DNA from: Actinomycetota bacterium
GTDB lineage: Bacteria > Actinomycetota > Acidimicrobiia > Acidimicrobiales > CADCSY01
Assembly: GCA_019348555.1 (NCBI GenBank)
Contig: JAHWJH010000005.1
Coordinates: 1 to 42,548 of the forward strand
Reading direction: 5' to 3'
Length of the DNA stretch: 42,548 nt
Part shown: one piece after another, positions 1 to 40,511 of the stretch
Position numbering within the stretch: position 1 is the stretch's first letter
Layout: every line of letters starts with the position of its first letter
Translations under genes and position numbers: made by a program
The notes under the pieces: model-generated
Databases searched by the model: none
Told to the model about the DNA's origin: nothing
What the model saw: only the letters and a program-made list of their open reading frames with translations

Positions 1-1144
1 AGACCGCGGCCTCCACGGTGACCGGCACGAGGTCGGTCTCGGAGCGGCCGGTGCCGCCGAACTTGGTGGGTTCGTCGGTGAACCTGACCACCACGGTGAC
101 GGTGCAACTCCCCACCGGCTGGTTCGCCGGGATGGCGAGGATGACCTCGTCGGGCTTGGCAGCCGTCGAGTTCACCGCGGGCGAGCCGCAACCGCTGGCG
201 GTGATCGACTTGATGGTTCCCCGCTCCACGGGGGTGGACGTCACGGTGAGGGTTCCACCGGCCTTGACCGGGTTGGGCTCCACGTCCTGCCCGGCGACGG
301 GAGGCCGCCCGTCGGGGTTCGACTCCACCAACCGGTCGAGCGAGCGGGCGATGAACGAGCCCATCTGGTCGCGCCGGACATCGCCGTTGGGGCCGTAGAG
401 ATTGCCGGTGGCGGCCTTGCTCACGCCCTGGGCCAGGCCCGCCTTGGCCACGGCGTTGATGCTCCCCTGGTGGGGGCTCGTGCCGTCGTCGACGAAGTAG
501 TCCTCGGTGGAGGCGGCGGCGGGGATGGGTAGTCCCGCTACCCGGTTGGCCTCCAGCAGGAAGGTGGCCATCTGGGCGCGGGACACCGTCTCCCGCGGGT
601 CGTAGCAGGCGGCGCCCGCGGCATTGGTGCCCGAGCCCTTGACCACTCCCGCGGCGGCCAGGCGCTGGATGTTGGCGTAGTGCACGTTGCTGGAGGTCAG
701 GTCGCACGGGAAGGGGTTGGTGGTGCCAGCCGGCTTCAGACCGTCGGTGGTCGATGCGGTCCTGTCGGCGACGTAGTCGATCATCTGGGCGATGAAGGTG
801 GCCATCTGGTCGCGCTGGACCGAGCCGATGGGGTCGTAGCTCGTCGCCGTCTTCCCTGAGGTGACCTTGTACCAGGCGACGCAGTCGATGGCGAACTCGT
901 GCGGGTTGTTGATGGGGACGTCGGTGAAGCCGTCCTCGGGCACCTGGGTGGTGGCGGAAGCGCCCCCCGTGCCGGGGAACACCGGGCAGGCGCTCTTGTC
1001 CGGCGGCTCACCGATGTTGCGTGCCGGCGGCGGGTCGAGCGCCCAGGCGGGGCTGGCCAGCGGGATGACGCCAAGGGCGAGCGCCCCGGCGAGGACGCTC
1101 CCCAGACGGCGAGCCCGCGTTCGGGAGGGAGGCGTGTGGGTCAT
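1..1144 (-). CDS. Secreted SLH-repeat protein, C-terminus truncated by window edge
   Basis: Read on the minus strand from ATG at 1144 (AAAGGGA SD-like sequence upstream): MTHTPPSRTRARRLGSVLAGALALGVIPLASPAWA signal peptide, then SLH-like repeats (VQRDQMATFIAQMIDYV, VSRAQMATFLLEANRV, VRRDQMGSFIARSLDRL) and a beta-rich C-terminal part. Open to position 1, so absent from the ORF track. Confidence 0.85.
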   Translation of the reverse strand, partial: MTHTPPSRTRARRLGSVLAGALALGVIPLASPAWALDPPPARNIGEPPDKSACPVFPGTGGASATTQVPEDGFTDVPINNPHEFAIDCVAWYKVTSGKTATSYDPIGSVQRDQMATFIAQMIDYVADRTASTTDGLKPAGTTNPFPCDLTSSNVHYANIQRLAAAGVVKGSGTNAAGAACYDPRETVSRAQMATFLLEANRVAGLPIPAAASTEDYFVDDGTSPHQGSINAVAKAGLAQGVSKAATGNLYGPNGDVRRDQMGSFIARSLDRLVESNPDGRPPVAGQDVEPNPVKAGGTLTVTSTPVERGTIKSITASGCGSPAVNSTAAKPDEVILAIPANQPVGSCTVTVVVRFTDEPTKFGGTGRSETDLVPVTVEAAV

Positions 1145-1250
1145 GGGGTCGTCCCTTTCATGGCGTGGGAGGACCGAGCGGAGGCAGGGTCCAGTGCCGA
1201 GTCTGGCATCGCTGCCCCCGGCAGGGCAATCACCGGCAGCCGCGCCGGCG

Positions 1251-2444
1251 TCAGGTGACGTTGACCGTCCTGATGTCGGTGGCGGTGCGCAGGCCCCCGG
1301 TGACATCGGCCCTCATGGTGGTCTTGACCCTGAGCTCGCAAGGCCCGGGCGGCTGGCCGGGGACCGTGGCCTTGAACTCCAACACGTTGACCCCGGGAGG
1401 CGGCTCTGGCGGGGGCGCGGCAGGGTCGGTGGGAGCAGGGGGAGGTGGGGGGACCGGAGCGCTGGTGACCTGGGGAGGTGCGATGCCGCATCCCGACACG
1501 GCGACCGACTCGATGGTGCCGTTGGCGCTGCGGACCGTGCCGGTGAACTCGACGCCCGCCTTGACGTCGGCGGGCACAGAGACGTCGGCGTCTGGCGGAG
1601 GCTTGACCTGGGTGAAGGCCATCATCCGCTCGAGGGCACGGGCCAGGAAGGCGGCCATCTGGTCGCGGCGCACGTCGCCCCGGGGGTTGTAGGTGGTGGC
1701 GGTGGAGCCGCCGGCGATGCCGGCGCCGGCGACGGCGTTGATGTTGTCGTGGTGGCTGCTGGCCCCGTCGTCGGTGAAGAAGTCGACGGTGGCGGCGGGG
1801 ATGGCCTCGCCCACCACCGAGGAGGCGTTCTTCAGGAAGGTGGCCATCTGGTCGCGCTTGACCGGGCCGTTGGGGTCGAAGCAGTTCCCGCTGGCGTTCG
1901 AGCCCGAGCCGGTGACGATCATCCTGTCGGCCAGACGCTGGATGCTGGCGTAGTGGGTGTCGGTGGGCGCCACGTCGCACGGGAAGGCGTTGACGGTGAA
2001 GGTGGCAGGGTCACGGAGGCCGTCGGGCATACCTGCCGTCGGCGTCGGCGTGCGCTTGGCCACGTAGTCGATCAGGTTGGCGATGAACGTGGCCATCTGG
2101 GCCCGGGTGACGTTGCGATCGGGGCCGAACTGCTTGCCGCCGGTGCCGGCGGCGATCTTGTACCAGGCCACGCAGTCGATGGCGAACTCGTGGATGTTGG
2201 CCGGGTTGGTCGGCGTCCCGAAGCCGTTCACGTCGGTGAAGCCGTCCTCGGGCACCACCGTGGTGTCGTCGGAGACCTCCGGGGTGCCCTGGGTGGCGAC
2301 CGGGCAGGCGGTCTTCTTGAAGTCCTGCAGCACCACGGCCGCCGACGCCGGCGCCGACAGCGGGAGCAGGCCGAGGGCAAGGACGGCAGCCAGGGCACCC
2401 CCGAGGCGCCGGACGCGCGCCCCGGGCGAGAACAGCTGGGTCAT
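1251..2444 (-). CDS. Secreted SLH-repeat protein, paralogue of the 1..1144 protein
   Basis: ORF 1251..2507, start placed at internal ATG 2444 (MTQLFSPGARVRRLGGALAAVLALGLLPLSAPASA signal peptide). SLH-like repeats VTRAQMATFIANLIDYV, VKRDQMATFLKNASSVV, VRRDQMAAFLARALERM; Pro-rich linker; same architecture as its neighbour. Confidence 0.88.
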   Translation of the reverse strand: MTQLFSPGARVRRLGGALAAVLALGLLPLSAPASAAVVLQDFKKTACPVATQGTPEVSDDTTVVPEDGFTDVNGFGTPTNPANIHEFAIDCVAWYKIAAGTGGKQFGPDRNVTRAQMATFIANLIDYVAKRTPTPTAGMPDGLRDPATFTVNAFPCDVAPTDTHYASIQRLADRMIVTGSGSNASGNCFDPNGPVKRDQMATFLKNASSVVGEAIPAATVDFFTDDGASSHHDNINAVAGAGIAGGSTATTYNPRGDVRRDQMAAFLARALERMMAFTQVKPPPDADVSVPADVKAGVEFTGTVRSANGTIESVAVSGCGIAPPQVTSAPVPPPPPAPTDPAAPPPEPPPGVNVLEFKATVPGQPPGPCELRVKTTMRADVTGGLRTATDIRTVNVT

Positions 2445-2540
2445 GGAAGCGGTCCCTTCGAGGAGCGGAGACATGGGCCCTGGACGAGCGTCCGGGGATT
2501 CAAGCACCGTTGCAACGATGGGGCAAGGAAACGAGCGCCC

Positions 2541-3040
2541 TTATGCGCCGAAACCGAGAGCGCGTGCCAGGAACGTGGCCATCTGCGCCCGGAGCACAGG
2601 CTCGGCCGGACAGTAGCGGTCGGCCGCGCAGCCGGTGGTGATGCCGGCCTTGGCCACGGAGCCGATGCCGGCGGCGTGCACGGAGGAGCCGGCGTCGGTG
2701 AAGCCGCCGGCGTCGCCGGGTGGGAGGGTGAACGCCTTGGCCAGGAAGGTGGCCATCTGGCCCCGGGTCACGGGGTCTTCGGGGCAGAACCGGCGCTCGC
2801 CGCATCCGGTGGTGATGCCCTTGTCGGCGATGGCGGCGATGGCGCCGCGGTGCACCGACCCGCCGGTGTCGTCGAAGCTGCCGCTGCCACCGACGGGGAG
2901 CCCGAGGGCCTTGGCCAGGAAGGTGGCCATCTGCCCCCGCGTCACCGTGTCGTTGGGGCAGTACCGCTCGGCAGCCCCGCCGCAGCCCGAGGTGACGCCC
3001 TTGCCGGCGATGGCCCAGATGTTGTACTCGTGCAGCGAGC
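2541..3040 (-). repeat. Three tandem SLH-type repeats at the C-terminus of the SpoIID-like protein
   Basis: Recurring protein unit ITTGC...RYCP..PVTRGQMATFLAKAL...F.D.GSSVH; DNA core like aaggtggccatctg recurs across 550-2960. Confidence 0.8.
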
Positions 3041-4457
3041 CGTCGTCGTCGGCGAAGGGCGGGAAGCCGATGGAGCGGATCTGCTGCGAGCGCAGCTCTC
3101 CGAGCAGCGCCAGCTTGAGGTTGGCGCCGGCACTGGGCTTGGGCCCACCGGTGTAGCGGCGCCTCACGGGGTTGCCGGCGCCGTCGACCCCGGAGATCTC
3201 CAGCTCGCGGGGGGTGCCCCCGGCGGTGCGGTCACCGACGATCCGCACGCCGGTGAGCGTGGCCAGCTCGGGCGCCACCACGTCGGCGAAGCGCCGGTTG
3301 TCGAGGGTGGCGCTCCAGGAGGCGAACGGGTTCTTCACCGCCGGGTCGAGCGACCACGGGTCGTCCACGCTGGCCAGATACGAGAACGGGGTGGAGAACG
3401 CCCAGCTGTCCTGGCTGTTCTCGGTGCGCCCCCCGTGCGACGAGGAGTAGACGGTCTGGGCCAGCGCTCCCCTGGAGGTCACGACCACGCCGGCGGTGCC
3501 GTCGACGGCCCCCACCCACGCCCGGCCGAAGGTGGGCTCACCCTCCTTGGACCACCCCGAGTAGAGCTGGTCGAGCGGCGTCGCTCCCAGGTGGCAGCCA
3601 CAGGGCTGAGCCCCGGCGTCGACGGTGGCCACCCGCCGGGTGGCGTAGGTGCGCCCGGCGACGGCCTGGGCCCGGAGCGCCTCGCCGTGCCAGCCCGACG
3701 GCATCTCGGCCAGCCCCCGCAGGTAGCGCTCGAGGGGCACCACCAGCACCGCCCGCAGGCGGTTGCCTCCCATGTCGGAGACCTCGAGGCGGCCCCACTG
3801 GTACGTGGCCGCCCGCTTGCCGGCCGTGGCGAGCGCCGCCTCGGAGGCGCCCCGGTCGGCGGCGGCGAGCAACTGGGGCAGGCGCAACAGGGTGGGGTTG
3901 GCCTCGACGTGCTCGAAGTGGACCGTCACCGGCCCGGGGCCCTCGCCCTTGGTGGCGCCGTTCTCGTCGACCAGCACGAAGCCGGGCCCGCCCCGGCGCA
4001 CGGCGTAGTCGAACGGGCCACCGGAGCCGCCCCAGGGGACGTCGACGGCGCCGGCGCCGAGGTCGACCGACACCGGCCGGGAAGGGGCGGCGCCGTTGCG
4101 GCTGGAGGTGCGCACCAGGATCGCCTCCTGGTCGACCAGCATGCCCACCCTGATCTCGCCCGGGACCCGGGCATCGGCGCCCACGTCGACCCCGGGGTAG
4201 TAGCTCCGCAGGATGTCGTGGTGCCCGCGCCCGGCCAGGGCCTGGGCGAAGGCGCCGTACTGGCTCATCCCGACGCTGTGGCCCCATCCCCCGCCCCGCA
4301 CCACCACCGGCGGGCCGGGCCCGGCGGGAACGGCGCCGGCGGCGGGGACGGCCGCCAAGCCCGTCGCTGCCTGGACCAGAGCCGCCACCACGGCAAGGGT
4401 GACGAGCCGCATCCGCCGGCGCGGCCGTGCGGGTCGACGTGGGGACGCAACGGGCAC
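2541..4457 (-). CDS. SpoIID/LytB-domain protein with C-terminal SLH repeats
   Basis: Within ORF 2541..7127. GGGWGHSVGMSQYGAFAQALAGRGHHDILRSYYPG, LERYLRGLAEMPSGWHGEALRAQAVAGRTYA and VYSSSHGGRTENS are SpoIID-type motifs. Three C-terminal repeats contain VTRGQMATFLAKAL / VTRGQMATFLAKAF / VLRAQMATFLARAL. Start set to GTG 4457, just downstream of a TACCCT box; ATG 4412 is an alternative. Confidence 0.88.
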   Translation of the reverse strand: MPVASPRRPARPRRRMRLVTLAVVAALVQAATGLAAVPAAGAVPAGPGPPVVVRGGGWGHSVGMSQYGAFAQALAGRGHHDILRSYYPGVDVGADARVPGEIRVGMLVDQEAILVRTSSRNGAAPSRPVSVDLGAGAVDVPWGGSGGPFDYAVRRGGPGFVLVDENGATKGEGPGPVTVHFEHVEANPTLLRLPQLLAAADRGASEAALATAGKRAATYQWGRLEVSDMGGNRLRAVLVVPLERYLRGLAEMPSGWHGEALRAQAVAGRTYATRRVATVDAGAQPCGCHLGATPLDQLYSGWSKEGEPTFGRAWVGAVDGTAGVVVTSRGALAQTVYSSSHGGRTENSQDSWAFSTPFSYLASVDDPWSLDPAVKNPFASWSATLDNRRFADVVAPELATLTGVRIVGDRTAGGTPRELEISGVDGAGNPVRRRYTGGPKPSAGANLKLALLGELRSQQIRSIGFPPFADDDGSLHEYNIWAIAGKGVTSGCGGAAERYCPNDTVTRGQMATFLAKALGLPVGGSGSFDDTGGSVHRGAIAAIADKGITTGCGERRFCPEDPVTRGQMATFLAKAFTLPPGDAGGFTDAGSSVHAAGIGSVAKAGITTGCAADRYCPAEPVLRAQMATFLARALGFGA

Positions 4458-4467
4458 CAAGGTCGAC

Positions 4468-4473
4468 AGGGTA
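4468..4473 (-). promoter_or_regulatory. TACCCT -10-like box, 10 nt before GTG 4457
   Basis: Minus strand TACCCTgtcgaccttgGTG. Confidence 0.45.
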
Positions 4474-4505
4474 GATGCGACCACGGCGCCGGGGGTGGAC
4501 GCCGG

Positions 4506-4511
4506 TAACCT
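4506..4511 (+). promoter_or_regulatory. TAACCT -10-like box, 9 nt before GTG 4521
   Basis: ggTAACCTcgccgcctcGTG; matches actinobacterial TAnnnT. Confidence 0.5.
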
Positions 4512-4520
4512 CGCCGCCTC

Positions 4521-6266
4521 GTGGAGCGCCGCCCGGTCGTGATCGCCGGGGTGCTCGCCGGCCTCGTCTTCTCCGCCACCTTCATCGCCCGCAGCGCCTT
4601 CGATCTGCTCGGCCGGCGGGCCTTCTCGCTGTTCGACGACGCCATGATCGGCATGATCTACGGCCGCAACCTGGCCCGGGGCGACGGCCTGGTGTGGAAC
4701 GCCGGCCAGCCGGCGGTGGAGGGGATCACCAACCCGCTGTGGACGGTGGTGATGGCGGGGGTGCACCTGGTGGTGCCCGACGACCGCTCGACCTCGCTGG
4801 CGGTGATGGCCATCGGGGCGGTGCTCCTCGCCCTCGGGGCGCTGCTGGCCGGGCGCATCGCCGCCGAGCTGGTGCCCGCCGGACCGGTGGCCCCCGCCGT
4901 GGCCACGTGGACGGCGGCGCTGCTGTACCCACTGGCGTTCTGGACGCTGCGGGGCATGGAGACCGGCCTCGCCGCCGTGCTGGTGCTGGCCGCCGCCCTG
5001 CTGACCCTCCGCCTCGCCGACGCCGACCCGGCCCGCCGGGCCCGGCTCTCGGGGTTGCTCGCCGTGGTGGTCGTGGCCGGGGTGTGGACCCGCCTCGACG
5101 TGGCCGTGGCCACGGTGGTGTGCGGACTGTGGCTGGCCGCCGCCGGTGGGGAGCACCGCCGCCACGCCGTCGTCGTCGTGGTCGCCGCCCTGGCGGTGGC
5201 CGTGGTCAGCCAGGAGCTGTTCCGACTCGCCTACTACGGCGAGCTGGTGCCCAACACCTTCACCCAGAAGATCGGCGGGGTGGCGCTGGGCACCCGCCTG
5301 GAGCGTGGCGTCGCCGGGCTGGGCCTCCAGGTCTCGACCAGCCTGGCGCCGCTCGTGCTGCTGGCCGTCGCCGGCCTGCGGCGGCCGATGCTGCGCAAGG
5401 CGAGCCTGCTCGGGGGACTGTTCGTCGCCTACGCCGCCTATAGCGTCTCCACCGGAGGCGACGCCTGGGAGTGGATGGGCTACACCAACCGGTTCCTGGT
5501 GCTGGGCGCCGTGGCCCTCGTACCCGTCGCCGGCGCCGGAGTGGCCACCGTCGCCCGGCTCGGGGCCCGCAGCGCCGGGGCCCTGGTGGCGGCCGCCGTC
5601 GTCCTCGGCGCCGTGGCCGTGGCCGACCCCTTCCCCGAAGCGCTGCTCCAGCGCGACGTCGCCACCGCCGTGCGGGCGGTGGCTCCGTTCACCGTCGCCG
5701 GTTTGCTGCTGGTGGCGGCTGTGCTGCTGGGCCGGCGCCGGCTGGGCCCGGCGGTCGCCGGCGCCTTCGGGACCGTCGCCCTGCTGGCCGCCGCCTCGGG
5801 GCCGGGGCTGGCCTACTGGGCCACGCACAACGCCGCCAGCGTCAACACCGACGCCGCCATGTCGCGCTACGGCGTGCTGCTCGGCGAGCTCACCGAACCG
5901 GGAACGTCGCTGGCCGTGGTGTGGGCCGGCGCCCCCATCTACTTCGCCGACCGCCCCGGCGTCGACGTCCTCGGCAAGAGCGACCGCCGCATCGCCGAGC
6001 TCGAGCCCCGCCCCGTCACCTTCCACCCGGGCCACATGAAGTGGGACTACGCCATCAGCGTCCTCGCGGACCGCCCCGACGTGATCGCCCGGCTGTGGCG
6101 CGACGTCGAGCCGGTGCTGCCGGCCCTGCGCGACGCCGGCTACGTGAGCGCCACCCCCACCGGCGAGTTGCGCCGGCTGTGGCTCGACGCCCGCAGCCCC
6201 CGCATCCTGGTGCGCACCGGGGCCGCCGGCGTGCGCTGGGACCGCCTGGCGGTGGAGGGCCTGTGA
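4521..6266 (+). CDS. Polytopic membrane protein, GT-C-like glycosyltransferase
   Basis: ORF 581 aa, many hydrophobic segments, N-terminal FSLFDDAMIGMIYGRNLARGDGLVWNAGQPAVEGITNPLW typical of GT-C-type arabinosyl/mannosyltransferase-like proteins. GTG start. Confidence 0.72.
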   Translation: MERRPVVIAGVLAGLVFSATFIARSAFDLLGRRAFSLFDDAMIGMIYGRNLARGDGLVWNAGQPAVEGITNPLWTVVMAGVHLVVPDDRSTSLAVMAIGAVLLALGALLAGRIAAELVPAGPVAPAVATWTAALLYPLAFWTLRGMETGLAAVLVLAAALLTLRLADADPARRARLSGLLAVVVVAGVWTRLDVAVATVVCGLWLAAAGGEHRRHAVVVVVAALAVAVVSQELFRLAYYGELVPNTFTQKIGGVALGTRLERGVAGLGLQVSTSLAPLVLLAVAGLRRPMLRKASLLGGLFVAYAAYSVSTGGDAWEWMGYTNRFLVLGAVALVPVAGAGVATVARLGARSAGALVAAAVVLGAVAVADPFPEALLQRDVATAVRAVAPFTVAGLLLVAAVLLGRRRLGPAVAGAFGTVALLAAASGPGLAYWATHNAASVNTDAAMSRYGVLLGELTEPGTSLAVVWAGAPIYFADRPGVDVLGKSDRRIAELEPRPVTFHPGHMKWDYAISVLADRPDVIARLWRDVEPVLPALRDAGYVSATPTGELRRLWLDARSPRILVRTGAAGVRWDRLAVEGL

Positions 6267-6299
6267 CGACGCGGGGCCGGCCACGCCCCGCTCGACGCC

Positions 6300-7397
6300 G
6301 TGGGTGAGCCGCGGGTGCTCGTGGCCGCGTGGGTGGGCTCGACCAACCTCGGCGACGAGCTGGTGTTCCGGGGCCTGCGCCGGCAGCTGCAGGAGCTGGG
6401 GGCGGTGGTGACGGCGGTGTCGGTCGACCCGGCGGCCACCAGGGCGACCCACGGCGTGGCCACCGTCGCTGCCGGCGACGTGGCCGGCCTGGTGCGCGCC
6501 GCCCGCCGGGCCGACCTGGTCGTGTTCGGGGGCGGCGGCCTGGTGCAGGACCAGACCAGCCCCTGGAACACCCCCTACCACCTGTCCCGGGTGTGGGCGG
6601 CGAGGGCCGGGCGTACGCCGGTGGCGGCCATCGGCCTCGGTGCCGGTCCCCTCGACACCCGCCTGGCCACGGCGCTGACCCGGATCACGCTTGCCCCCCT
6701 GCGAGGCATCACCACCCGGGACGCGACGTCGGCGGAGGTGCTGGAGGGCCTGGGGATCAACGGCGTCACGGTGGCGGCCGACCTGGCCCTGTCGCTGCCC
6801 GTCCCCGACGTGGTGGTCGACGACCACCTCGTCGTGGCCCTGCGGCCGTGGCGGCGACGCCGGCGGCGCCTGCCCGTCGCCGTGGCGCGCGGCGGCCCCG
6901 CTGCCCCGGCGTGGTTCGTGGCCGGGGCGGCATCGGCCCTCGACGCCGCATCGGTGGCCACCGGGCTCGAGGTGCGCTTCGTGGCGCTCCAGGGCGACCG
7001 TGACGGACCGCTGCACGACCAGGTGGCCGGCCGCATGCGCACGCCGGTCACGACGTGCCGGCCCGACGTCGACGGCGTGGTCGACGAGGTGGCCCGGGGC
7101 CGGGTGGTCGTGGCCATGCGCTACCACGCCCTGGTGGCCGCCGTGCTCGGCGCCCGACCGGGCGTGGCCATCGGCTACTCCCCCAAGGTGGCGTCGCTGG
7201 TCGCCGACGTGGGCACGGGTGCCGTCGCCCTCGACTGGAGCCCGGATGGGCTGTCCCGCCTGGCCGGCGCCGTGGAGCGGGCAGCGGCGGGCGGGGACTG
7301 CGCCACCGAGGCGGTGGCCGAGACCCGCGCCCGGCTGCGGCGGCGGGAGCGGGCCAACCGCGCGGCCCTGGCCCGGGCTCTCTCCGTCCCGGCGTAG
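6300..7397 (+). CDS. csaB: Polysaccharide pyruvyl transferase, CsaB-like
   Basis: VAAWVGSTNLGDELVFRGLRRQL, VVFGGGGLVQDQTSPWNTPYHLSRVW, GITTRDATSAEVLEGLGI, MRYHALVAAVLGARPGVAIGYSPKVASLVADVG match the polysaccharide pyruvyl transferase/CsaB family. Confidence 0.87.
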   Translation: MGEPRVLVAAWVGSTNLGDELVFRGLRRQLQELGAVVTAVSVDPAATRATHGVATVAAGDVAGLVRAARRADLVVFGGGGLVQDQTSPWNTPYHLSRVWAARAGRTPVAAIGLGAGPLDTRLATALTRITLAPLRGITTRDATSAEVLEGLGINGVTVAADLALSLPVPDVVVDDHLVVALRPWRRRRRRLPVAVARGGPAAPAWFVAGAASALDAASVATGLEVRFVALQGDRDGPLHDQVAGRMRTPVTTCRPDVDGVVDEVARGRVVVAMRYHALVAAVLGARPGVAIGYSPKVASLVADVGTGAVALDWSPDGLSRLAGAVERAAAGGDCATEAVAETRARLRRRERANRAALARALSVPA

Positions 7398-7409
7398 CCC
7401 GGCGCCGCG

Positions 7410-8480
7410 TCAGGCCGGGTCGGGGCCCCGGGCTGTCAGCAGCCGCCAGCCGGCCGGAGACGTGGTGCGGTAGTCGTACATCGAGAACCCGAGGGCGCCG
7501 GTCTCCTCGACGGCGCGGACGAAGCCTTCGTAGTCGTCGACGGTGGACGTGTCGGCGACACCGCCGACAGGGTGGACGAGTGCCGACGGATCACCCAGGC
7601 TGTCGAGCAGGTGGCGGATGCCCGCCTCGGTGTAGCGGTAGCCATCGCCGTAGCTCGACTCCGCCGCGATCTCGGTCCAGTAGGCCATCGGCAGCCACAC
7701 GTCGAAGCTCGGTGCCAGCTCCTTCCAGGGGAAGTCCGGCCAGAAGTCGGGCCGGATCTCCTCGAACAGCACGGGGGGGTAGACGATGGCGCCGAGGGGG
7801 CGCCCGCGCGCCTCCTCACGGAAGCGCCTGGACAGCTCCAGCATGCGCCGGTTCCGCTCGGCATGGTCGGGCACGTCGCGGCGGTACTCGATGTCGACGG
7901 CGATGCCGTCGAAGCGGTGGCCGTCGACGTCGAGATCGCGGATCCTCCGCAGGTTGGCCAGGTCGGCCTCCACGTCGGCGAACTTGGGCAGGTACCACCC
8001 CACCACGTGCATCCCCCGCTCGTGGGCCCGCTTCAGGAACGTGGCGACGAGCGCCGGGTCGACGATGCCCTCGGGCGATCGGTCGTCGAGCCGGGCGGCC
8101 TGGAGGAACAGGGTGCCCACCCCTCGCGCCGCCATGGCGTCGATGTCGTCGGGCACCAACAGCGGCCCTTCCCGCGGGCGGTGGTACGCGGGGGCGTAGT
8201 CGAAGGCGTCCATCCAGGCGCCCAGGCCGCGGTAGGCCGACACGTCAGGGCCCGCCGGCGGCGGCGTGCTCGTCGTGGTGGACGACGACGGCACGGGCGC
8301 GACCGCTTCGAAGCCGCGGTCGAGGAACCATCGGGATGGTGAGGGAACAGCGGAGGCCGGAGCGATCGTCGGCTCCGGACCGGCGGCGCTGCCGTGCCGG
8401 TTCACCGCGCTGGTCACGCCGGCGCACAGCACGACGGCGACGAGGCCGAAGAGCATCGCGGTGCCCCGCCGGTGGTCCAT
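7410..8480 (-). CDS. Secreted TIM-barrel glycosidase-like protein (GH18-like signature)
   Basis: N-terminal hydrophobic signal, Ser/Thr/Pro linker, then FDGIAVDIEY resembling the GH18 DGxDxDxE signature, with D-to-A at one position; YWTE and GFSMYDYRTT near the C-terminus. Confidence 0.65.
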   Translation of the reverse strand: MDHRRGTAMLFGLVAVVLCAGVTSAVNRHGSAAGPEPTIAPASAVPSPSRWFLDRGFEAVAPVPSSSTTTSTPPPAGPDVSAYRGLGAWMDAFDYAPAYHRPREGPLLVPDDIDAMAARGVGTLFLQAARLDDRSPEGIVDPALVATFLKRAHERGMHVVGWYLPKFADVEADLANLRRIRDLDVDGHRFDGIAVDIEYRRDVPDHAERNRRMLELSRRFREEARGRPLGAIVYPPVLFEEIRPDFWPDFPWKELAPSFDVWLPMAYWTEIAAESSYGDGYRYTEAGIRHLLDSLGDPSALVHPVGGVADTSTVDDYEGFVRAVEETGALGFSMYDYRTTSPAGWRLLTARGPDPA

Positions 8481-8486
8481 CGCCTC

Positions 8487-8492
8487 ACGGTA
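8487..8492 (-). promoter_or_regulatory. TACCGT -10-like box, 6 nt before ATG 8480
   Basis: Minus strand TACCGTgaggcgATG. Confidence 0.45.
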
Positions 8493-8525
8493 ACGGGGGC
8501 GGTCCGGCGCAGCAGGGCGCGGTGC

Positions 8526-9638
8526 CTAGCCGAGCTCGGCCACCAGCACGTCGAGGATGTCGGCGGAGGGGCTGCAGGCCGGAAGCGAAGGGCTCCGGCG
8601 GTAGGGCCCGGGATCGGCGAGGAAGGCCCGCTCCACGGCGGGGTCGTGGCCGGAGACCACCACGTTGGCCCCCACGCCGTCGGAGCGCTCGCTGCGCCGG
8701 CGCCACACCAGGGTCGGCACGCCGAGCAGGGCGCACTCCTCCTGGATGCTGCCGCCGTCGGTGACCACCAACGGTGCGGCGCGCAGCATGGCCACGAAGT
8801 CGTGGTGGGGCACCAGCGACGACAGCTCGACGCCGGCCGAGCGCAGCCGTTGCTCGTGGCCCCCCCGGCGGAGCGCCTCCCACGTGGGCCCGTGCACCAC
8901 GAAGCGCACCGGCACTCGGGCGACGAGCTCGACCACGGCGTCGACCAGGCGCTGCACCACCGGACGCTGGTACAGGTTCTCCACCCGGTGCATGGTGACC
9001 ACCGCCGGTCCCGTGCCGGGGAGGCCGTCGTCGCCGTTTCCGTCGCCTCCCGGGGCCGAGCGCACGGCGTCGACCGACGTGTTGGCCGAGCCCGCCACCA
9101 CCCGGCCCCGCACCCCCATGGCGGCCAGGTTGGCCACGGCCTGGGCGTCGGGGGCGAAGAGCAGGTCGGCCCGGCGCATGACGGCCAGACGGATCAGCTC
9201 CTCGGGGAAGGGGTGCAGCAGGTGGTGCGACCGCAGCCCCGCCTCCAGGTGGGCCACCCGCAGTCCGGCCCGGGAGGCCATGAGGGTGGCCAGCGCCGTG
9301 GTGGGGGTGTCGCCGTGCACCACGCAGATGCCGCCGGAGCCCCCGAACACCTCCCGGCGCAGGCGCGCCGGCGAGCCCAGGCGCAGGGCCAGTCGTGCCG
9401 CCCAGGCCAGCGCCTGAGGGAGCGACTCCACATCGGCGTCGCCGCCGAGCACGTGGTCGGGCGTGCGCACGCCGAGCTCCGCCCGCAAGCCGGCGGTGAG
9501 GCGGGCGTGCTGGCCCGAGTCGATCAACCGGTAGTCGACGCCACGACCGTCCATCAGCCGCAGCAGCGGGGCGGTCTTGATGTACTGGGCCTTGGTGCCG
9601 AGGAACACCTGCAGGCGCTCGTCGGTGGCGGACGTCAC
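8526..9638 (-). CDS. wecB: UDP-N-acetylglucosamine 2-epimerase (non-hydrolysing)
   Basis: LQVFLGTKAQYIKTAPLLRLM, VVHGDTPTTALATLMASRAGLRVAHLEAGLRS, FPEELIRLAVMRRADLLFAPDAQAVANL, VTDGGSIQEECALLGVPTLVWRRRSERSDG. Confidence 0.9.
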   Translation of the reverse strand: MTSATDERLQVFLGTKAQYIKTAPLLRLMDGRGVDYRLIDSGQHARLTAGLRAELGVRTPDHVLGGDADVESLPQALAWAARLALRLGSPARLRREVFGGSGGICVVHGDTPTTALATLMASRAGLRVAHLEAGLRSHHLLHPFPEELIRLAVMRRADLLFAPDAQAVANLAAMGVRGRVVAGSANTSVDAVRSAPGGDGNGDDGLPGTGPAVVTMHRVENLYQRPVVQRLVDAVVELVARVPVRFVVHGPTWEALRRGGHEQRLRSAGVELSSLVPHHDFVAMLRAAPLVVTDGGSIQEECALLGVPTLVWRRRSERSDGVGANVVVSGHDPAVERAFLADPGPYRRSPSLPACSPSADILDVLVAELG

Positions 9639-9647
9639 GGTCGCCGG

Positions 9648-9653
9648 AGTCTA
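9648..9653 (-). promoter_or_regulatory. TAGACT -10-like box, 9 nt before GTG 9638
   Basis: Minus strand TAGACTccggcgaccGTG. Confidence 0.45.
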
Positions 9654-9732
9654 CGGGTGCCCACCCGGGCCACCCGCCCGGAGCGGTGGCCCGATGAGGC
9701 CCGGTGCGGTTGTAACCTTTCGCCCGATCGCC

Positions 9733-10650
9733 ATGCCCACCAGTGACCCCACCGCGGCCGAGCTCGACGTCAGCGTCGTCCTGCCGGTCTACAACGAGCA
9801 GGGACACCTCTGCGACGAGATCGACCGCATCCGAGCCGGTCTCGACGCCTCGCCCTACAGCTACGAGATCGTGGTGGTCGACGACGGGTCGTCCGACGGG
9901 TCGTCGGAGTTGCTCGGCCAGATCGATGGGATCCGCCTGCTGCGCTTCGCCCAGAACCGGGGGACGGGGTCGGCCCGCAAGGCGGGGACCCGGGCGGCCC
10001 GGGGCCGGGTGGTCGTGTGGACCGACGCGGACATGACCTATCCCAACGGCGACATCGCCCTGCTGGTCAAAGAGCTCGACGGCGCCGACCAGGTGGTGGG
10101 GGCCCGCACCTCCGAGCAGGGCACCGCCAAGGCCCTGCGGGTGCCGGCCAAGTGGCTCATCCGGGCCCTGGCCAGCTACCTGACCAAGACGCCCATCCCC
10201 GACCTGAACTCGGGCTTCCGGGCCTTCCGGCGCAACGTGGCCCTGCAGTACCTGCACCTCCTGCCACCGGGGTTCTCGTGCGTCACGACCATCACCATGG
10301 CCTTCCTGGCCAACGGCTACTCGGTGCGCTACGTGCCGATCGACTACCGGGCTCGGGCCGGCACCTCGAAGTTCCACTGGTGGCTCGACACCAAGCGCTA
10401 CCTGGCCCAGATCGTGCGCCTGGTGCTCTCGTACAACCCGCTGCGGGTGTTCCTGCCCCTGGCCGGGGCGCTCTTCGGCCTCGGCCTGCTCAAGCTGGGC
10501 TACGACGCCGTCGACAAGGACTTCAGGCTGGCCACCAACACCCTGCTGATCTTCTTCGCTGCCTTCCAGCTCTTCGTGCTCGGTCTCCTGGCCGATCTGG
10601 TGGTGCGGGTGAGCAAGCCCGCCCACGAAGTGGAGCCCGCTTCACTCTGA
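9733..10650 (+). CDS. Family 2 glycosyltransferase (DPM-synthase-like, C-terminal TM segments)
   Basis: Start at internal ATG 9733 of ORF 9577..10650: DVSVVLPVYNEQGHLCDEIDRI, VVVDDGSSDGS, WTDADMTYPNGDI, DLNSGFRAFRR, FHWWLDTKRYLAQIVRL. Confidence 0.9.
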   Translation: MPTSDPTAAELDVSVVLPVYNEQGHLCDEIDRIRAGLDASPYSYEIVVVDDGSSDGSSELLGQIDGIRLLRFAQNRGTGSARKAGTRAARGRVVVWTDADMTYPNGDIALLVKELDGADQVVGARTSEQGTAKALRVPAKWLIRALASYLTKTPIPDLNSGFRAFRRNVALQYLHLLPPGFSCVTTITMAFLANGYSVRYVPIDYRARAGTSKFHWWLDTKRYLAQIVRLVLSYNPLRVFLPLAGALFGLGLLKLGYDAVDKDFRLATNTLLIFFAAFQLFVLGLLADLVVRVSKPAHEVEPASL

Positions 10651-10687
10651 ACCCCCCGAACCCCCCGAACCCCCCGGACCCCCCCGA
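10651..10687 (-). other. Predicted G-quadruplex motif made of a 9-nt tandem repeat
   Basis: Plus strand accccccga accccccga accccccgg acccccccga; minus strand has four G-tracts of 7,6,6,6 separated by 3-nt loops. Confidence 0.8.
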
Positions 10688-10701
10688 CCGGAGCGTCGCC
10701 G

Positions 10702-12504
10702 ATGCCCTCCTCCCGACCCGACAGCCGCCCGCGCCGGCGCCCCTGCTGGGGCTCGCCGGTGCTGGCCGTGGTCGTCGTCGCCGTGGTCGCCGCCCTGGTG
10801 GAGGCTCCCACCCCACCGACGCCCCTGACGCCGTCCACGGTGGCCTCCTCCGGCTCGGCGGCCACCGAGAGCCAACCGCTGGATGCCGACATCGGGCGCC
10901 AGGTGGCCGAGGGCATCGACGTCGCCGCCCAGAGGGTCGACGTGGCCCCCTTCGACGTGGTGGGGGTGAGCTGGGCCCCGGGGACGAGAGCGCCGGCACG
11001 GGTGCGGGTGCGCAAGGCCGGGACGTGGAGCGACTGGCACGAGCTCGAGACCGAAGGCGGCGACGCTCCCGACCCTGGTTCCCCCGAGGGCACCGTCGCC
11101 CGGGTGGTGAGCGCACCGGTGTGGGTCGACGGCGCCGACGGCTACGAGGTCGACGTGCCCGAGGGGGTGGGCGACGTGGCCGTGCACCTGGTGCGTGACC
11201 GGCCCGCCGCGGCGCCCGGCGAGGTGACGCTGGCGGCGTCGCCCCGCACCGCCTCGAAGGCGCCCGCCATCACGTCGCGGGCGTCGTGGTCAGCGCGCAC
11301 GCCCACGTCGGCCCCGACCGTCGCTCCGACGCTGAAGATGGCCTTCGTGCACCACACCGTCAGCACCAACGACTACACCGCCGCCGACGTGCCCGGCATG
11401 CTGCGCGGCATCCAGGCGTACCACATGGACGTCAACGGCTGGGACGACATGGGCTACAACTTCCTCGTCGACCGCTTCGGCGGCATCTGGGAGGGCCGGG
11501 CGGGCGGCACGACCCGCAACGTGGTGGGCGCCCACGCCGTCGGGTTCAACACCTCGTCGGTGGGCGTGGCCGTGCTCGGAGAGTTCACCACGGCCACGCC
11601 CACGTCGGCCTCGATCGGCGCCGTGGGCCGGCTGCTGGGGTGGCGGCTGAAGCTGGCCGGCGTCAACCCCGAGGGCCGCGCCTCCATGCCCGTCGCCGGC
11701 GGGACGAGGAGCTTCGCCGCCGTCTCCGGCCACCGCGACGCCGACGCCACCGCCTGCCCCGGCACCGAGCTCTACGCGCGGCTGTCCACGATCCGCGACC
11801 TGGCCGCCGGGGAGTCTGGCCCCGCTGCCAACCGGCCCATCGACACCGCCGTGGCGTGCCCGTCGGGACGGGTGCCCGAAGGGGGCTTCGTCGATGTGGG
11901 CTCGTCCAACGTCCACCACCGGGCCGTCGACTGCCTGGCGTGGTACGGGGTCACCGCCGGCGGGCCCGACGGCATGCCGCCCGATCGCTACGGGCCCGAG
12001 CTGCGGGTGCGGCGGGGGCAGATGGCGACGTTCATCGTCCGGACGCTCGAGCGCGTCGACCCCGCGCTGGTCGGCGTGGCCGAGGGCGAGTTCGCCTGCC
12101 CGTCCGATCCGGCGCTGGCGCTGCCTGTCGACCATCCCCACGCCGATGCCGTGCGTCGCCTCGCCCGGGCCGGGGTCGTCTCGGGCGGCGTGGGCGGGGC
12201 GCCGGCCGACTGCTTCGGACCCGAGGTCGAGGTGCGCCGCGACCAGATGGCGTCGTTCCTGCACGCCGCCCTGGAGCTGGCCACCGGCCAGCGCATCAGC
12301 TCCGACACCGACGCCTTCGACGACGACAAGGGGAGCCCGCACGAGCCCGCCATCGACGCCCTGTCGGGCCGGCGGGTGGTGGCCGGCACCGGGTTCCGCA
12401 CCTACGCCCCGTCGTCGCCGGTCAGGCGTGACCAGATGGCCTCCTTCCTGGCCCGCCAGCTCGGTGCCCTGGTCGACGCCGGCCTGGCCTCACCTCCACC
12501 CTGA
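10702..12504 (+). CDS. N-acetylmuramoyl-L-alanine amidase (PGRP/amidase_2-like) with C-terminal SLH repeats
   Basis: MAFVHHTVSTNDYTAADVPGMLRGIQAYHMDVNGWDDMGYNFLVDRFGGIWEGRAGG...VGAHAVGFNTSSVGVAVLGEF...GHRDADATACPG; then SLH-like VRRGQMATFIVRTLERV, VRRDQMASFLHAALELA, VRRDQMASFLARQLGAL. Confidence 0.93.
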   Translation: MPSSRPDSRPRRRPCWGSPVLAVVVVAVVAALVEAPTPPTPLTPSTVASSGSAATESQPLDADIGRQVAEGIDVAAQRVDVAPFDVVGVSWAPGTRAPARVRVRKAGTWSDWHELETEGGDAPDPGSPEGTVARVVSAPVWVDGADGYEVDVPEGVGDVAVHLVRDRPAAAPGEVTLAASPRTASKAPAITSRASWSARTPTSAPTVAPTLKMAFVHHTVSTNDYTAADVPGMLRGIQAYHMDVNGWDDMGYNFLVDRFGGIWEGRAGGTTRNVVGAHAVGFNTSSVGVAVLGEFTTATPTSASIGAVGRLLGWRLKLAGVNPEGRASMPVAGGTRSFAAVSGHRDADATACPGTELYARLSTIRDLAAGESGPAANRPIDTAVACPSGRVPEGGFVDVGSSNVHHRAVDCLAWYGVTAGGPDGMPPDRYGPELRVRRGQMATFIVRTLERVDPALVGVAEGEFACPSDPALALPVDHPHADAVRRLARAGVVSGGVGGAPADCFGPEVEVRRDQMASFLHAALELATGQRISSDTDAFDDDKGSPHEPAIDALSGRRVVAGTGFRTYAPSSPVRRDQMASFLARQLGALVDAGLASPPP

Positions 12505-12532: not shown

Positions 12533-13486
12533 TCAGCGGCGGCGGGCCTCGGCCACGGCCACGGCCAGCCCGTCACGCACGAGGATGAGCAGCCGGAAGC
12601 CGGCGACGACCACCACCAGCTCGGCCACGCCGGCTCCGACTTCCTGGGTGGCGGCTCCGGCGCCGAGGAGGGCGGCCAGGGCCACTTCGAACACGCCGAG
12701 GCCCTGAGGGGCGAACACGGCGAGCATGCCGAGCACCCTGGTCACCAGGAACGCCCCGGCCACGCCCAGCACCCCGGGCAGGACGGCGGTCACGGCCGGG
12801 AACGCTCGGACGTAGGCCACGAACATCGCCGCCGAGCTGATCCAGAACAGGGCCAACCACCCCACGAGCCCGGCGAAGGCAGCCCAGCCGAGGCGGGGCC
12901 CGCCTCCCCCCCACCGCCGGCCCACGGCGTCGAGGGCCCGGTTGACCACCGGTGGCGAGCACGTCACCGCAGCCGCTCCCAGCCCGACCAGAGCCAACCA
13001 CCCCACCCCCGGCGGGAGGCCGCTGCTGACCAGCAGCAGCGCCGAGCCGAGCAGAAAGCCCACGACCACGCTGAGGCCGATCTCCAGCACCGACACCGCC
13101 GCCAGCGCCCGAGTGGACACCCCGTGGCGGCGCAGCAGGGCGCCACGGCCGACGGCGTACCACACGCTGCCGGGCAGGTAGCGGGCCAGCAGCGACCGGG
13201 CGGTGGCATCGAGCACCACTGGGAACGGCGCAGGGTCACCCAACGAGCGCAGCGCCAGGACCCATAGCCCCGAGCCGAGGCCCAGCTGCACGAAGCCGAG
13301 GGCGAGGGCGAGGGCCAGCGGGGCGAACCGGGCGCCGTCGAGGAGCGGGGCGACGCTGTGGCGCTGGTCCCACGCCAGCCAGCCGAGGGCGACGGCCACG
13401 CCTCCCAGGTAGGCGACGCGCACCACGGTGCGGAGGGTGCCGGACGTGTCGGGAAGGAGATGCCGGCGCCGGCCGGCGCCGGTCAC
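12533..13486 (-). CDS. Flippase-like membrane protein (lysylphosphatidylglycerol synthase TM / UPF0104-like)
   Basis: GTG start at 13486 overlapping upstream TGA (GTGA). ARSLLARYLPGSVWYAVGRGALLRRHGVSTRALAAVSVLEIGLSVVVGFLLG; FAPQGLGVFEVALAALL. Confidence 0.72.
   Translation of the reverse strand: MTGAGRRRHLLPDTSGTLRTVVRVAYLGGVAVALGWLAWDQRHSVAPLLDGARFAPLALALALGFVQLGLGSGLWVLALRSLGDPAPFPVVLDATARSLLARYLPGSVWYAVGRGALLRRHGVSTRALAAVSVLEIGLSVVVGFLLGSALLLVSSGLPPGVGWLALVGLGAAAVTCSPPVVNRALDAVGRRWGGGGPRLGWAAFAGLVGWLALFWISSAAMFVAYVRAFPAVTAVLPGVLGVAGAFLVTRVLGMLAVFAPQGLGVFEVALAALLGAGAATQEVGAGVAELVVVVAGFRLLILVRDGLAVAVAEARRR
13463..13482. repeat. 20-bp perfect palindrome
   Basis: CCGGCGCCGGCCGGCGCCGG is its own reverse complement; lies just after the GTG start of the 12533..13486 gene. 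Confidence 0.9.
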
Positions 13487-15135: not shown

Positions 15136-15142
15136 CGGCGGC

Positions 15143-15148
15143 ACCTTA
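15143..15148 (-). promoter_or_regulatory. TAAGGT -10-like box, 7 nt before GTG 15135
   Basis: Minus strand ggTAAGGTgccgccgGTG. Confidence 0.45.
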
Positions 15149-15197: not shown

Positions 15198-16118
15198 CTA
15201 CTCGACCAGCACCTCGCTGCTGCGGGGCCTGCGGTAGTGGACGACCAGCTCGGCGAGCAGGCCGAGCGACATGAGCTGCACGCCGACCACCACCAGCAAC
15301 ACGCCGATGAGCAGGGCGGGGCGCTGACCCACGGCGTTGCCGGCCAGCTTGGACACGCCCATCCACGCCAGCAGCACGGCGCCGAGCGTCCCGCTGAGCA
15401 GCCCGATCCCGCCGAAGAGGTGGAAGGGCCGGGCGGTGTAGGTGGTGAGGAACTTGACCGTCAACAGGTCGAGGAACCCCCGCCAGAACCGGGACCGGTC
15501 GAACTTCGAGGTGCCGTGGAGCCGGGCGTGATGGGCGACGTCGACCTCGGCGACGGTGAAGCCGGCCCAGGCGGCCAGCACCGGCACGTAGCGGTGCAGC
15601 TCGCCGTAGAGCTCGACGGCGTCGGCGACGCTCCGGGTCATGGCCTTGAGCCCGCTGTTGAAGTCGCGCCCGGCCACGCCCGTCACCCCGGCGGTGACCC
15701 GGTTGTAGAGCTTGGAGGTGTTGCGCTTGACCATCCGGTCGTGGCGTACCACCCGGCGCCCGGTCACCAGGTCGGCCCCCGCCGCCAAGGCGTCGAGCAG
15801 GGCGGGGATCTCTGCGGGATCGTCCTGGCCGTCGGCGTCCATGAGCACGACCACCTCGCCGTCGGTGTGGTCGAATCCGGCCTGGAGCGCGGTCGACTTG
15901 CCACAGTTGCGCCGGAGCCGCAGCGAGCGCACGCCGGGGTGTGCGTCGGACAGACGGCGCAGGAGCGAGCGGGTCTCGTCGGTGCTGCCGTCGTCGACCA
16001 CCACCACCTCGAAGGTGGTGCCCACGCCTTCCAGCACGGCCACGGTCCGGGGGACGATCTCCGCCAGGTTGGGGGCCTCGTCGTAGGCAGGCATGATCAC
16101 CGAGATGTGGGTGCCCAT
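15198..16118 (-). CDS. Family 2 glycosyltransferase with C-terminal TM segments (GtrB/DPM-like)
   Basis: MGTHISVIMPAYDEAPNLAEIVPRTVAVLEG, VVVDDGSTDETRSLL, LMDADGQDDPAEIPALL, DFNSGLKAMTRSV, FDRSRFWRGFLDLLTVKFL. AGAGG SD-like sequence before ATG 16118. Confidence 0.9.
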   Translation of the reverse strand: MGTHISVIMPAYDEAPNLAEIVPRTVAVLEGVGTTFEVVVVDDGSTDETRSLLRRLSDAHPGVRSLRLRRNCGKSTALQAGFDHTDGEVVVLMDADGQDDPAEIPALLDALAAGADLVTGRRVVRHDRMVKRNTSKLYNRVTAGVTGVAGRDFNSGLKAMTRSVADAVELYGELHRYVPVLAAWAGFTVAEVDVAHHARLHGTSKFDRSRFWRGFLDLLTVKFLTTYTARPFHLFGGIGLLSGTLGAVLLAWMGVSKLAGNAVGQRPALLIGVLLVVVGVQLMSLGLLAELVVHYRRPRSSEVLVE

Positions 16119-35318: not shown

Positions 35319-35386
35319 CTGGGACGTCGGTAAGGCACCCAGCGGCACCGGGCGACAGCGTAGCCCGCATTCGCCTCGGGGCTCGG

Positions 35387-37000: not shown

Positions 37001-37046
37001 GACCGCAGCATCCACGGCGAGGACCCGGCCGGTCCCCGAGGAGCCG

Positions 37047-38633: not shown

Positions 38634-38640
38634 AGGAGCG

Positions 38641-40296: not shown

Positions 40297-40511
40297 GTTC
40301 GCTCTTCGCTCCTTGTGGTGCCGCCTCGTCGGTGCCGCTCAAGCATCGCCGCCACACCACCTCAGGCGGCGTGGCACGCCGCTCAGGTGCGTGGCCGTTG
40401 CACACCAGGCTGCGGGCGCCGTTGTCGGTGTGCGTTCGACGCCGCCGCAGGACCTGTCTGCTTGCCCGAGGCTAGCGCCGTGCCCCGGCTCCGGCGCCTA
40501 CCACGCTGAGG

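What the first reader, a model, noticed from the sequence alone, without database searches (positions are those of the whole stretch)
1..12504. Compact SLH-protein / pyruvylated-polymer anchoring locus in a high-GC organism
Four SLH-repeat proteins sit within 12.5 kb of a CsaB-type pyruvyl transferase (6300-7397) and a non-hydrolysing UDP-GlcNAc 2-epimerase (8526-9638). Established knowledge: in Bacillus/Paenibacillus, SLH domains bind secondary cell-wall polymer carrying 4,6-pyruvylated ManNAc, made using CsaB, and the 2-epimerase supplies UDP-ManNAc. Here donor synthesis, the capping enzyme, glycosyltransferases and the anchored clients are interleaved. Inference: a self-contained S-layer-like anchoring system that may not be described in this lineage.
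Basis: partly seen in the sequence, partly recalled or inferred. Interest (0 to 1): 0.75.

Follow-up and report, generated by a model that had tools for sequence, protein, structure and literature searches.

The report
Acidimicrobial wall-anchoring locus with CsaB-like enzyme
An uncultured acidimicrobial bacterium carries, side by side, secreted wall enzymes with S-layer-homology anchors and the genes that probably make and pyruvate-tag the sugar those anchors hold; the principle is known from Bacillus and Paenibacillus, but the gene set here differs and suggests another way of making the tag.

Summary
The contig (class Acidimicrobiia) has four three-repeat SLH genes within 12.5 kb of the genome's only polysaccharide pyruvyltransferase and a UDP-GlcNAc-2-epimerase-like gene. 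Across 296 genomes of the class, all 31 with a strong CsaB-like protein also have SLH proteins (about 6 expected), against 1 of 13 with other pyruvyltransferases; in 25 of 31 the SLH genes lie within about 10 kb of csaB. The modelled SLH triad matches B. anthracis Sap bound to pyruvylated ManNAc; pyruvate-coordinating Arg43/Gly29 and the CsaB PEP-site residues are kept. So SLH anchoring to a pyruvylated wall polymer is very likely. It is not a copy of the Firmicutes pathway: TagA is absent from 26 of 31 CsaB genomes; csaB travels with an ArnC/GtrB-like polyprenyl-phosphate sugar transferase, a PF03706 flippase-like protein, a GT-C protein and a private epimerase subfamily; the CsaB acceptor loop and SLH ring-stacking residue are changed. 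Best reading: a Gtr-type capping route that pyruvylates a polyprenyl-phosphate-linked ManNAc-type sugar (inferred). The sure clients are wall hydrolases, so 'S-layer' is unproven, and 'self-contained' is wrong: LCP and initiator genes lie elsewhere. New variant of a known kind.

The parts
2..1144 (-). SLH protein A: signal peptide, three SLH repeats, C-terminal region cut off by the contig end
   Evidence: PF00395 over cut-off; three repeats; 52% identical over 269 aa to the neighbouring SLH protein B
1251..2444 (-). SLH protein B: signal peptide, three SLH repeats, about 110-aa C-terminal domain of unknown type
   Evidence: PF00395 59.5 bits; three repeats
2541..4412 (-). SpoIID/LytB-type wall hydrolase with C-terminal SLH triad
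   Evidence: PF08486, TIGR02669 144 bits over cut-off, PF00395 45 bits; model matches Sap/SpaA SLH trimers 3pyw, 6bt4, 7sv3
4521..6266 (+). polytopic membrane protein (about 10 TM), 33 bp upstream of the csaB-like ORF; possible GT-C glycosyltransferase (inference, no family match)
   Evidence: no Pfam, NCBIfam or PDB match; TM estimate; not found near csaB in relatives
6300..7397 (+). CsaB-like polysaccharide pyruvyltransferase
   Evidence: PF04230 101 bits, TIGR03609 180 bits; PEP residues Arg140, Arg181, Arg274, His276, Lys296 conserved; model pLDDT 91.5, GT-B fold, Pvg1p 5ax7 among matches
7410..8480 (-). secreted or membrane-anchored protein of unknown family, resembling a glycoside hydrolase by eye only
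   Evidence: no Pfam, NCBIfam or PDB match
8526..9638 (-). non-hydrolysing UDP-GlcNAc 2-epimerase-like protein (donor synthesis), lineage-specific subfamily
   Evidence: PF02350 152 bits; PDB epimerases; Asp110, Glu132, Glu146, His217 invariant in 32 homologues; subfamily in 18 genomes, 14 of them with CsaB
9733..10650 (+). GT2 polyprenyl-phosphate sugar transferase of ArnC/GtrB/DPMS type, two C-terminal TM helices
   Evidence: PF00535; best PDB matches ArnC, GtrB sll0501, dolichyl-P-mannose synthase; about 60-76% identical orthologues, several next to csaB or wecB in relatives
10702..12504 (+). peptidoglycan amidase (Amidase_2) with C-terminal SLH triad
   Evidence: PF01510 52 bits, PF00395 47 bits
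12533..13486 (-). flippase-like membrane protein (LPG_synthase_TM, PF03706); its homologue lies directly downstream of csaB in 38 related loci
   Evidence: found in 12 of 296 genomes, all CsaB-positive
13483..15144 (-). PMT-type GT-C glycosyltransferase overlapping the flippase-like gene by 4 bp; candidate outer-face transferase
   Evidence: PF02366 39.6 bits and PF13231 36.8 bits, both over cut-off; 9 TM
15198..16118 (-). second ArnC/GtrB-like GT2, possible alternative partner of the GT-C and flippase-like genes
   Evidence: PRK10714/ArnC model 162 bits, under its cut-off; PF00535

Best explanation
The locus is a protein-anchoring module of the cell wall. Secreted proteins, chiefly wall hydrolases (a SpoIID-type lytic enzyme and an amidase) and two small SLH proteins, carry a triad of SLH repeats that binds a pyruvylated amino sugar on a wall polymer. 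The locus also encodes the tag: the epimerase makes the donor (probably UDP-ManNAc), a GT2 loads the sugar onto a polyprenyl lipid, and the CsaB-like enzyme adds pyruvate from PEP. Shown here: gene content, linkage, class-wide co-occurrence, SLH fold, and conserved pyruvate-handling residues on both sides. Inferred: that the sugar is ManNAc; that in this lineage the tag is built on a polyprenyl-monophosphate carrier (GT2, then CsaB, then the PF03706 flippase-like protein, then a GT-C) and placed as a cap on a polymer made elsewhere, rather than built into a TagO/TagA Und-PP disaccharide repeat as in Paenibacillus alvei.
For: SLH in four proteins and triad model matching Sap and SpaA SLH, including complexes with pyruvylated ManNAc. 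Arg43 in 191/192 and Gly29 in 189/192 SLH domains across the class, 21/21 in this genome; their role is from PMC6081394. CsaB PEP residues R148/R207/R306/H308/K328 of P. alvei (PMC10435577) all aligned and kept in the window protein. Co-occurrence 31/31 against 1/13 for other pyruvyltransferases. Physical linkage in 25/31 and in named Acidimicrobiia, Nitriliruptoraceae and Egibacteraceae. Epimerase subfamily linked to CsaB (14/18 genomes, p 2e-12) with catalytic residues invariant. GT2 gene and epimerase gene adjacent on the same strand in G094, G105 and G276, fitting a shared sugar. PF03706 homologue only in CsaB genomes (12/12) and directly downstream of csaB in 38 loci, 11 overlapping by 4 bp. 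TagA absent from 26/31 CsaB genomes.
Against: No chemistry or binding data exist. The CsaB-like and WecB-like proteins score below their NCBIfam equivalog cut-offs. CsaB acceptor residues Tyr14/Phe16 of P. alvei are Val/Ser here, and the SLH Trp13 is replaced by an adjacent His, so the bound sugar may not be ManNAc. The GT2 orthologue also occurs in 38 genomes without strong CsaB, so it is not dedicated to this pathway. In the window the flippase-like gene is 5 kb from csaB and the GT-C partner is not identified. This genome itself does have a TagA. 13 SLH genomes have no detected CsaB-type enzyme or fusion, some perhaps through assembly gaps.
Confidence: 0.7

Rival explanations
1. Canonical route: TagO and TagA make Und-PP-GlcNAc-ManNAc, CsaB pyruvylates that disaccharide, and LCP proteins attach the polymer, exactly as in Paenibacillus alvei; only the gene order differs.
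For: This genome has one TagA-family protein, one TagO/WecA-type protein and one LCP protein. P. alvei CsaB acts on the lipid-PP-linked disaccharide (PMC6030368).
Against: TagA is missing from 26 of 31 CsaB genomes of the class; 5/31 have it against 62/265 of the rest, so no association. Here TagA sits with Wzx/Wzy-, WcaJ- and Wzz/kinase-like genes by sequence inspection, i.e. an exopolysaccharide cluster. In Pontibacillus csaB-tagA-tagO-DUF5693 are contiguous; nothing like that is seen in the csaB neighbourhoods here.
Confidence: 0.2
2. The pyruvylated sugar is not ManNAc (another hexose or HexNAc), and SLH has co-adapted to it.
For: CsaB acceptor loop WVGSTNLGDE instead of YYGFGNAGDE; SLH Trp13 found in only 6 of 192 domains, with His/Phe/Tyr at position 14 in 170; epimerase Arg13 replaced by Lys/Gln.
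Against: An epimerase with all catalytic residues is linked to csaB in several families. No clean covariation between CsaB loop and SLH residue was seen across genomes.
Confidence: 0.25
3. The pyruvyltransferase decorates an exopolysaccharide and its closeness to SLH genes merely reflects a large envelope-glycan cluster.
For: The rest of the 42.5-kb contig is rich in glycosyltransferase and nucleotide-sugar genes.
Against: Perfect co-occurrence with SLH (31/31), against 1/13 for other pyruvyltransferases; in family f9 only the CsaB genome (G258) has SLH, while G087, G095, G229 and G291 have neither strong CsaB nor SLH.
Confidence: 0.05
4. A true two-dimensional S-layer is anchored here.
For: Two tandem, 52% identical secreted SLH proteins of about 400 aa with a non-SLH C-terminal domain could be abundant surface proteins.
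Against: They are small; the other clients are hydrolases. No lattice protein was identified, and SLH proteins need not be S-layer proteins (PMC5817068).
Confidence: 0.1

Closest known systems
CsaB / pyruvylated secondary cell wall polymer / SLH anchoring of Bacillus anthracis and Paenibacillus alvei
   Same: SLH triads, CsaB-type pyruvyltransferase with intact PEP site, UDP-GlcNAc 2-epimerase, SLH genes next to csaB
   Different: No TagA in most genomes and no csaB-tagA-tagO operon; csaB linked instead to an ArnC/GtrB-like GT2, a PF03706 flippase-like protein and a private epimerase subfamily; altered CsaB acceptor loop and SLH stacking residue; 25% identity to Pontibacillus CsaB
Multi-component transmembrane glycosylation systems (CsbB-GtcA-YfhO, GtsABC), PMC8035078
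   Same: A GT2 polyprenyl-phosphate transferase with TM helices, a putative flippase and GT-C proteins occur together
   Different: Flippase-like protein is PF03706, not the GtrA type; a pyruvyltransferase is built into the set; GT-C partner not settled in the window
CsaB-glycosyltransferase fusion proteins of other Acidimicrobiia (found here)
   Same: Same CsaB-type domain, usually next to SLH genes
   Different: CsaB domain N-terminal to a GT4, or C-terminal to a GT2; stand-alone in the window

Membership tests
SLH domain (PF00395) anchored proteins | Profile match over curated cut-off, three tandem copies | tested here: met
   Four proteins over 20.8 bits; three repeats each
SLH domain (PF00395) anchored proteins | Three-pronged SLH trimer fold | tested here: met
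   All 15 significant PDB matches of the SpoIID-SLH model are SLH trimers, TM to target 0.75-0.82; overall model confidence moderate
SLH domain (PF00395) anchored proteins | Arg43 and Gly29 that coordinate pyruvate | tested here: met
   21/21 domains in this genome
SLH domain (PF00395) anchored proteins | Trp13 stacking on the sugar ring | tested here: not met
   Never Trp in the 12 repeats of the window; His at 14 in all 12. An aromatic or His at 13 or 14 in 174/192 domains of the class. Trp13 is not universal in accepted SLH proteins, so this is a variant feature, not an exclusion
CsaB equivalog (TIGR03609) | Score over curated cut-off of 213.1 bits | tested here: not met
   180.3 bits over nearly the whole model; 1 of 296 genomes in the class exceeds it in the six-frame search
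CsaB equivalog (TIGR03609) | PEP-site residues R148, R207, R306, H308, K328 | tested here: met
   All five aligned and conserved in the window protein (numbering from PMC10435577)
CsaB equivalog (TIGR03609) | Acceptor-site Tyr14 and Phe16 | tested here: not met
   Val and Ser in the window protein
CsaB equivalog (TIGR03609) | Pyruvylation of lipid-linked ManNAc | not testable with these tools
   needs enzyme assay
Non-hydrolysing UDP-GlcNAc 2-epimerase (PF02350/TIGR00236) | Family match and catalytic Asp/Glu/Glu/His | tested here: met
   PF02350 152 bits; residues invariant in 32 homologues
Non-hydrolysing UDP-GlcNAc 2-epimerase (PF02350/TIGR00236) | TIGR00236 cut-off of 210 bits and the substrate-binding Arg of the GTRPE motif | tested here: not met
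   130.7 bits; GTKAQ here, Lys or Gln in most of the subfamily
Firmicutes SCWP pathway (TagO-TagA-CsaB) | TagA encoded with or alongside CsaB | tested here: not met
   Absent from 26/31 CsaB genomes; present in this genome but on another contig
Multi-component transmembrane glycosylation system | Membrane GT-A making polyprenyl-P-sugar | tested here: met
   ArnC/GtrB/DPMS matches and two C-terminal TM segments; by sequence only
Multi-component transmembrane glycosylation system | Flippase, usually GtrA-type | tested here: inconclusive
   A PF03706 protein travels with csaB; no GtrA-type match among the proteins scanned
Multi-component transmembrane glycosylation system | GT-C transferase | tested here: inconclusive
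   PMT protein at 13483-15144, unassigned membrane protein at 4521-6266; neither is the GT-C seen next to csaB in relatives
S-layer | Abundant self-assembling lattice protein | not testable with these tools
   needs microscopy or proteomics

The most novel reading that the evidence does not exclude
In Acidimicrobiia the SLH ligand is made by a Gtr-type capping system: an epimerase-fed GT2 makes polyprenyl-phosphate-HexNAc, CsaB pyruvylates this monosaccharide-lipid, a PF03706 protein flips it, and a GT-C places it as a terminal cap on a wall polymer, with no TagA and no pyruvylated repeat unit. This would be a second, independent assembly logic for the same anchoring principle.
Probability: 0.35. 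Interest if true: 0.65.

Novelty: new variant of a known kind. Interest (0 to 1): 0.5.

Why it matters
SLH anchoring by a pyruvylated polymer is studied almost only in Firmicutes and cyanobacteria. A class-wide, tightly linked version in Actinomycetota without TagA suggests that the anchoring epitope is kept while the route that makes it changes. It offers a concrete test of how pyruvate caps are made, names candidate flippase and transferase genes, and suggests that a main use of SLH display in this lineage is to hold wall-remodelling enzymes. The GT-CsaB fusions give natural pairs for finding the enzyme that supplies the CsaB acceptor.

Tried and rejected
Clean covariation of CsaB acceptor-loop type with SLH position 13/14 across genomes: tested, not seen. 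The 4521-6266 membrane protein as the GT-C that accompanies csaB elsewhere: no homologue in related loci and no profile match. TagA as a general partner of CsaB in the class: not associated. The GT2 orthologue as strictly CsaB-linked: no, 38 of 52 genomes with it lack strong CsaB. Foldseek with the CsaB model does not separate pyruvyltransferases from other GT-B proteins, so it is weak support. phmmer of the SLH triad against PDB found nothing; the fold search did. One Pfam call failed on a mistyped reference.
Full report
WHAT IS THERE. The window is a complete 42,548-bp contig (C239) of a 2.76-Mb, 283-contig genome, 85.75% complete and 5.6% contaminated, 72% GC. Contigs of genomes given as 'same class' have the same lengths as records titled Acidimicrobiia (for example G272:C1 and OY282370.1, both 3,007,243 bp), so the class is Acidimicrobiia. 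GC-by-codon-position and codon-usage gene calling gives this order: SLH protein A (2-1144, -), SLH protein B (1251-2444, -), SpoIID-SLH (2541-4412, -), membrane protein (4521-6266, +), CsaB-like (6300-7397, +), unknown secreted protein (7410-8480, -), epimerase (8526-9638, -), GT2 (9733-10650, +), amidase-SLH (10702/10759-12504, +), PF03706 protein (12533-13486, -), PMT-type GT-C (13483-15144, -), second GT2 (15198-16118, -). Pfam and NCBIfam scans confirm the named families. The CsaB-like protein and the epimerase both score below the curated equivalog cut-offs of TIGR03609 and TIGR00236, so they are called CsaB-like and WecB-like here.

MORE THAN CHANCE. The genome's SLH hits fall on C239 (four genes) and on C205, C208, C220 and C248; C239 also holds the only pyruvyltransferase. 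In 296 genomes of the class, TIGR03609 matches split by score. Thirty-one genomes have a strong match (120 bits or more) and all 31 have SLH; 56 of 296 have SLH overall (Fisher p 6e-27; relatedness not corrected, 10 families). Among 13 genomes whose only match is a weak, non-fusion pyruvyltransferase, one has SLH. A third group has a GT2-pyruvyltransferase fusion (about 850 aa; recognised by its partial model match, architecture shown by Pfam for L065); 13 of 16 of these have SLH, and in 7 of the 10 loci read SLH genes lie nearby. In family f9 only G258 has strong CsaB and SLH; G087, G095, G229 and G291 have neither. SLH genes lie within about 10 kb of csaB in 25 of 31 genomes (several of the six exceptions are on short contigs). 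A scan of named genomes finds the same neighbourhood in Acidimicrobiia, and SLH next to csaB also in Nitriliruptoraceae (L079, L082, L099) and Egibacteraceae (L081).

RESIDUE-LEVEL TESTS. In Paenibacillus SpaA the pyruvate is held by SLH-Arg43 and the Gly29 backbone flip, and Trp13 stacks on the sugar (PMC6081394). In 192 domains from the class, Arg43 is kept in 191 and Gly29 in 189; Trp13 is found in 6, but His, Phe, Tyr or Trp stands at position 14 in 170 (an aromatic or His at 13 or 14 in 174; only 25 and 14 at positions 12 and 15). In this genome 20 of 21 domains have His14 and 20 of 21 have Gln in place of the TRAE glutamate. The AlphaFold model of SpoIID-SLH is moderate overall (mean pLDDT 66.7), but its 15 significant PDB matches are all SLH trimers of Sap or SpaA, including complexes with pyruvylated ManNAc. 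For CsaB, the P. alvei PEP-site residues R148, R207, R306, H308 and K328 (PMC10435577) are all kept, whereas the acceptor residues Tyr14 and Phe16 are Val and Ser. P. alvei numbering was tied to sequence through the primer printed in PMC6030368 and a Pontibacillus CsaB. The epimerase keeps Asp, Glu, Glu and His in 32 homologues but has Lys or Gln for the GTRPE arginine (roles from PMC11464976).

A DIFFERENT ASSEMBLY ROUTE? In P. alvei, TagA adds ManNAc to lipid-PP-GlcNAc and CsaB acts on the disaccharide (PMC6030368); in Pontibacillus csaB-tagA-tagO-DUF5693 are contiguous. In Acidimicrobiia TagA (PF03808) is absent from 26 of 31 CsaB genomes and not associated with CsaB (5/31 against 62/265). 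The TagA of this genome is in a Wzx/Wzy/WcaJ-like cluster, judged by inspection. What does travel with csaB is: (a) a PF03706 flippase-like protein directly downstream in 38 loci, 11 with 4-bp overlaps; homologues of the window's copy are found in 12 genomes, all CsaB-positive; (b) the epimerase subfamily, in 18 genomes of which 14 have CsaB; (c) a GT2 whose best solved relatives are ArnC, GtrB and dolichyl-phosphate-mannose synthase, directly upstream of csaB on the same strand in 12 loci; (d) a GT-C-like membrane protein of about 490 aa in 25 loci. The GT2 and epimerase genes are neighbours on one strand in G094, G105 and G276, three genera in two families. A GT-A, a flippase and a GT-C define the transmembrane glycosylation systems that decorate wall polymers from outside (PMC8035078). 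The proposal is that CsaB acts on the polyprenyl-phosphate monosaccharide of such a system. It fits the reported requirement of P. alvei CsaB for a lipid-linked acceptor and the preference of SLH for a terminal sugar, but it is inference. Points against: the GT2 also occurs without CsaB, the flippase-like gene in the window is 5 kb away, and the GT-C partner in the window is not settled.

ANCHORED CLIENTS. Two of the four are wall hydrolases (SpoIID/LytB and Amidase_2). Elsewhere in the genome SLH is joined, by inspection, to a parallel-beta-helix-like protein and to proteins with Asp-rich repeats. Nothing shows a lattice, so 'S-layer' is not claimed.

NOVELTY. The held library has no paper joining Acidimicrobi* with SLH or S-layer homology. 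Papers report SLH in Actinobacteria in general and CsaB-like enzymes mainly in Firmicutes and Cyanobacteria (PMC6801904). Subscription papers are not held, so this is weak evidence of absence. The anchoring principle is known; the gene set, the missing TagA, the acceptor-side changes and the GT-CsaB fusions make it a new variant.

Noticed in passing
L031:3343-5889; L032:1210-3762; L035:7819-10491; L042:9410-12919: CsaB domains fused N-terminally to GT4-type glycosyltransferase domains (850-1170 aa; the longest carries two GT4 parts), in genomes with SLH proteins. L031 exceeds the TIGR03609 cut-off.
   Followed up: partly
L061:2853-5399; L065:7795-10392; also L066-L070: GT2-pyruvyltransferase fusions of about 850-880 aa next to SLH genes, in genomes mostly without stand-alone CsaB; a probable replacement for CsaB.
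   Followed up: partly
L047:5990-8842 and relatives: A 950-aa protein with two GT2 matches sits directly upstream of csaB in nine loci.
   Followed up: partly
window 18401-20064: Two genes resembling F420 biosynthesis genes cofD and cofE (recognised by eye, not tested) inside the glycan cluster.
   Followed up: no
window 26275-31862: Oligopeptide-type ABC transporter operon (binding protein, two permeases, two ATPases, by eye) in the middle of the envelope cluster.
   Followed up: no
window 32999-42539: Two sets of paralogous polytopic membrane proteins, probably GT-C; one (38641-40296) weakly resembles the GT-C found near csaB in relatives (hhalign probability 43%).
   Followed up: partly
L076:3246-5384, L073:1090-2499, L074:1229-2083 (same genome): Further SLH clients: a parallel-beta-helix-like protein with an SLH triad and proteins with Asp-rich repeats.
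   Followed up: no
L050 (G258:C1:327400-347300): Several SLH genes clustered around csaB, mostly with Tyr-Tyr at SLH positions 13-14, unlike the His14 of this genome.
   Followed up: no
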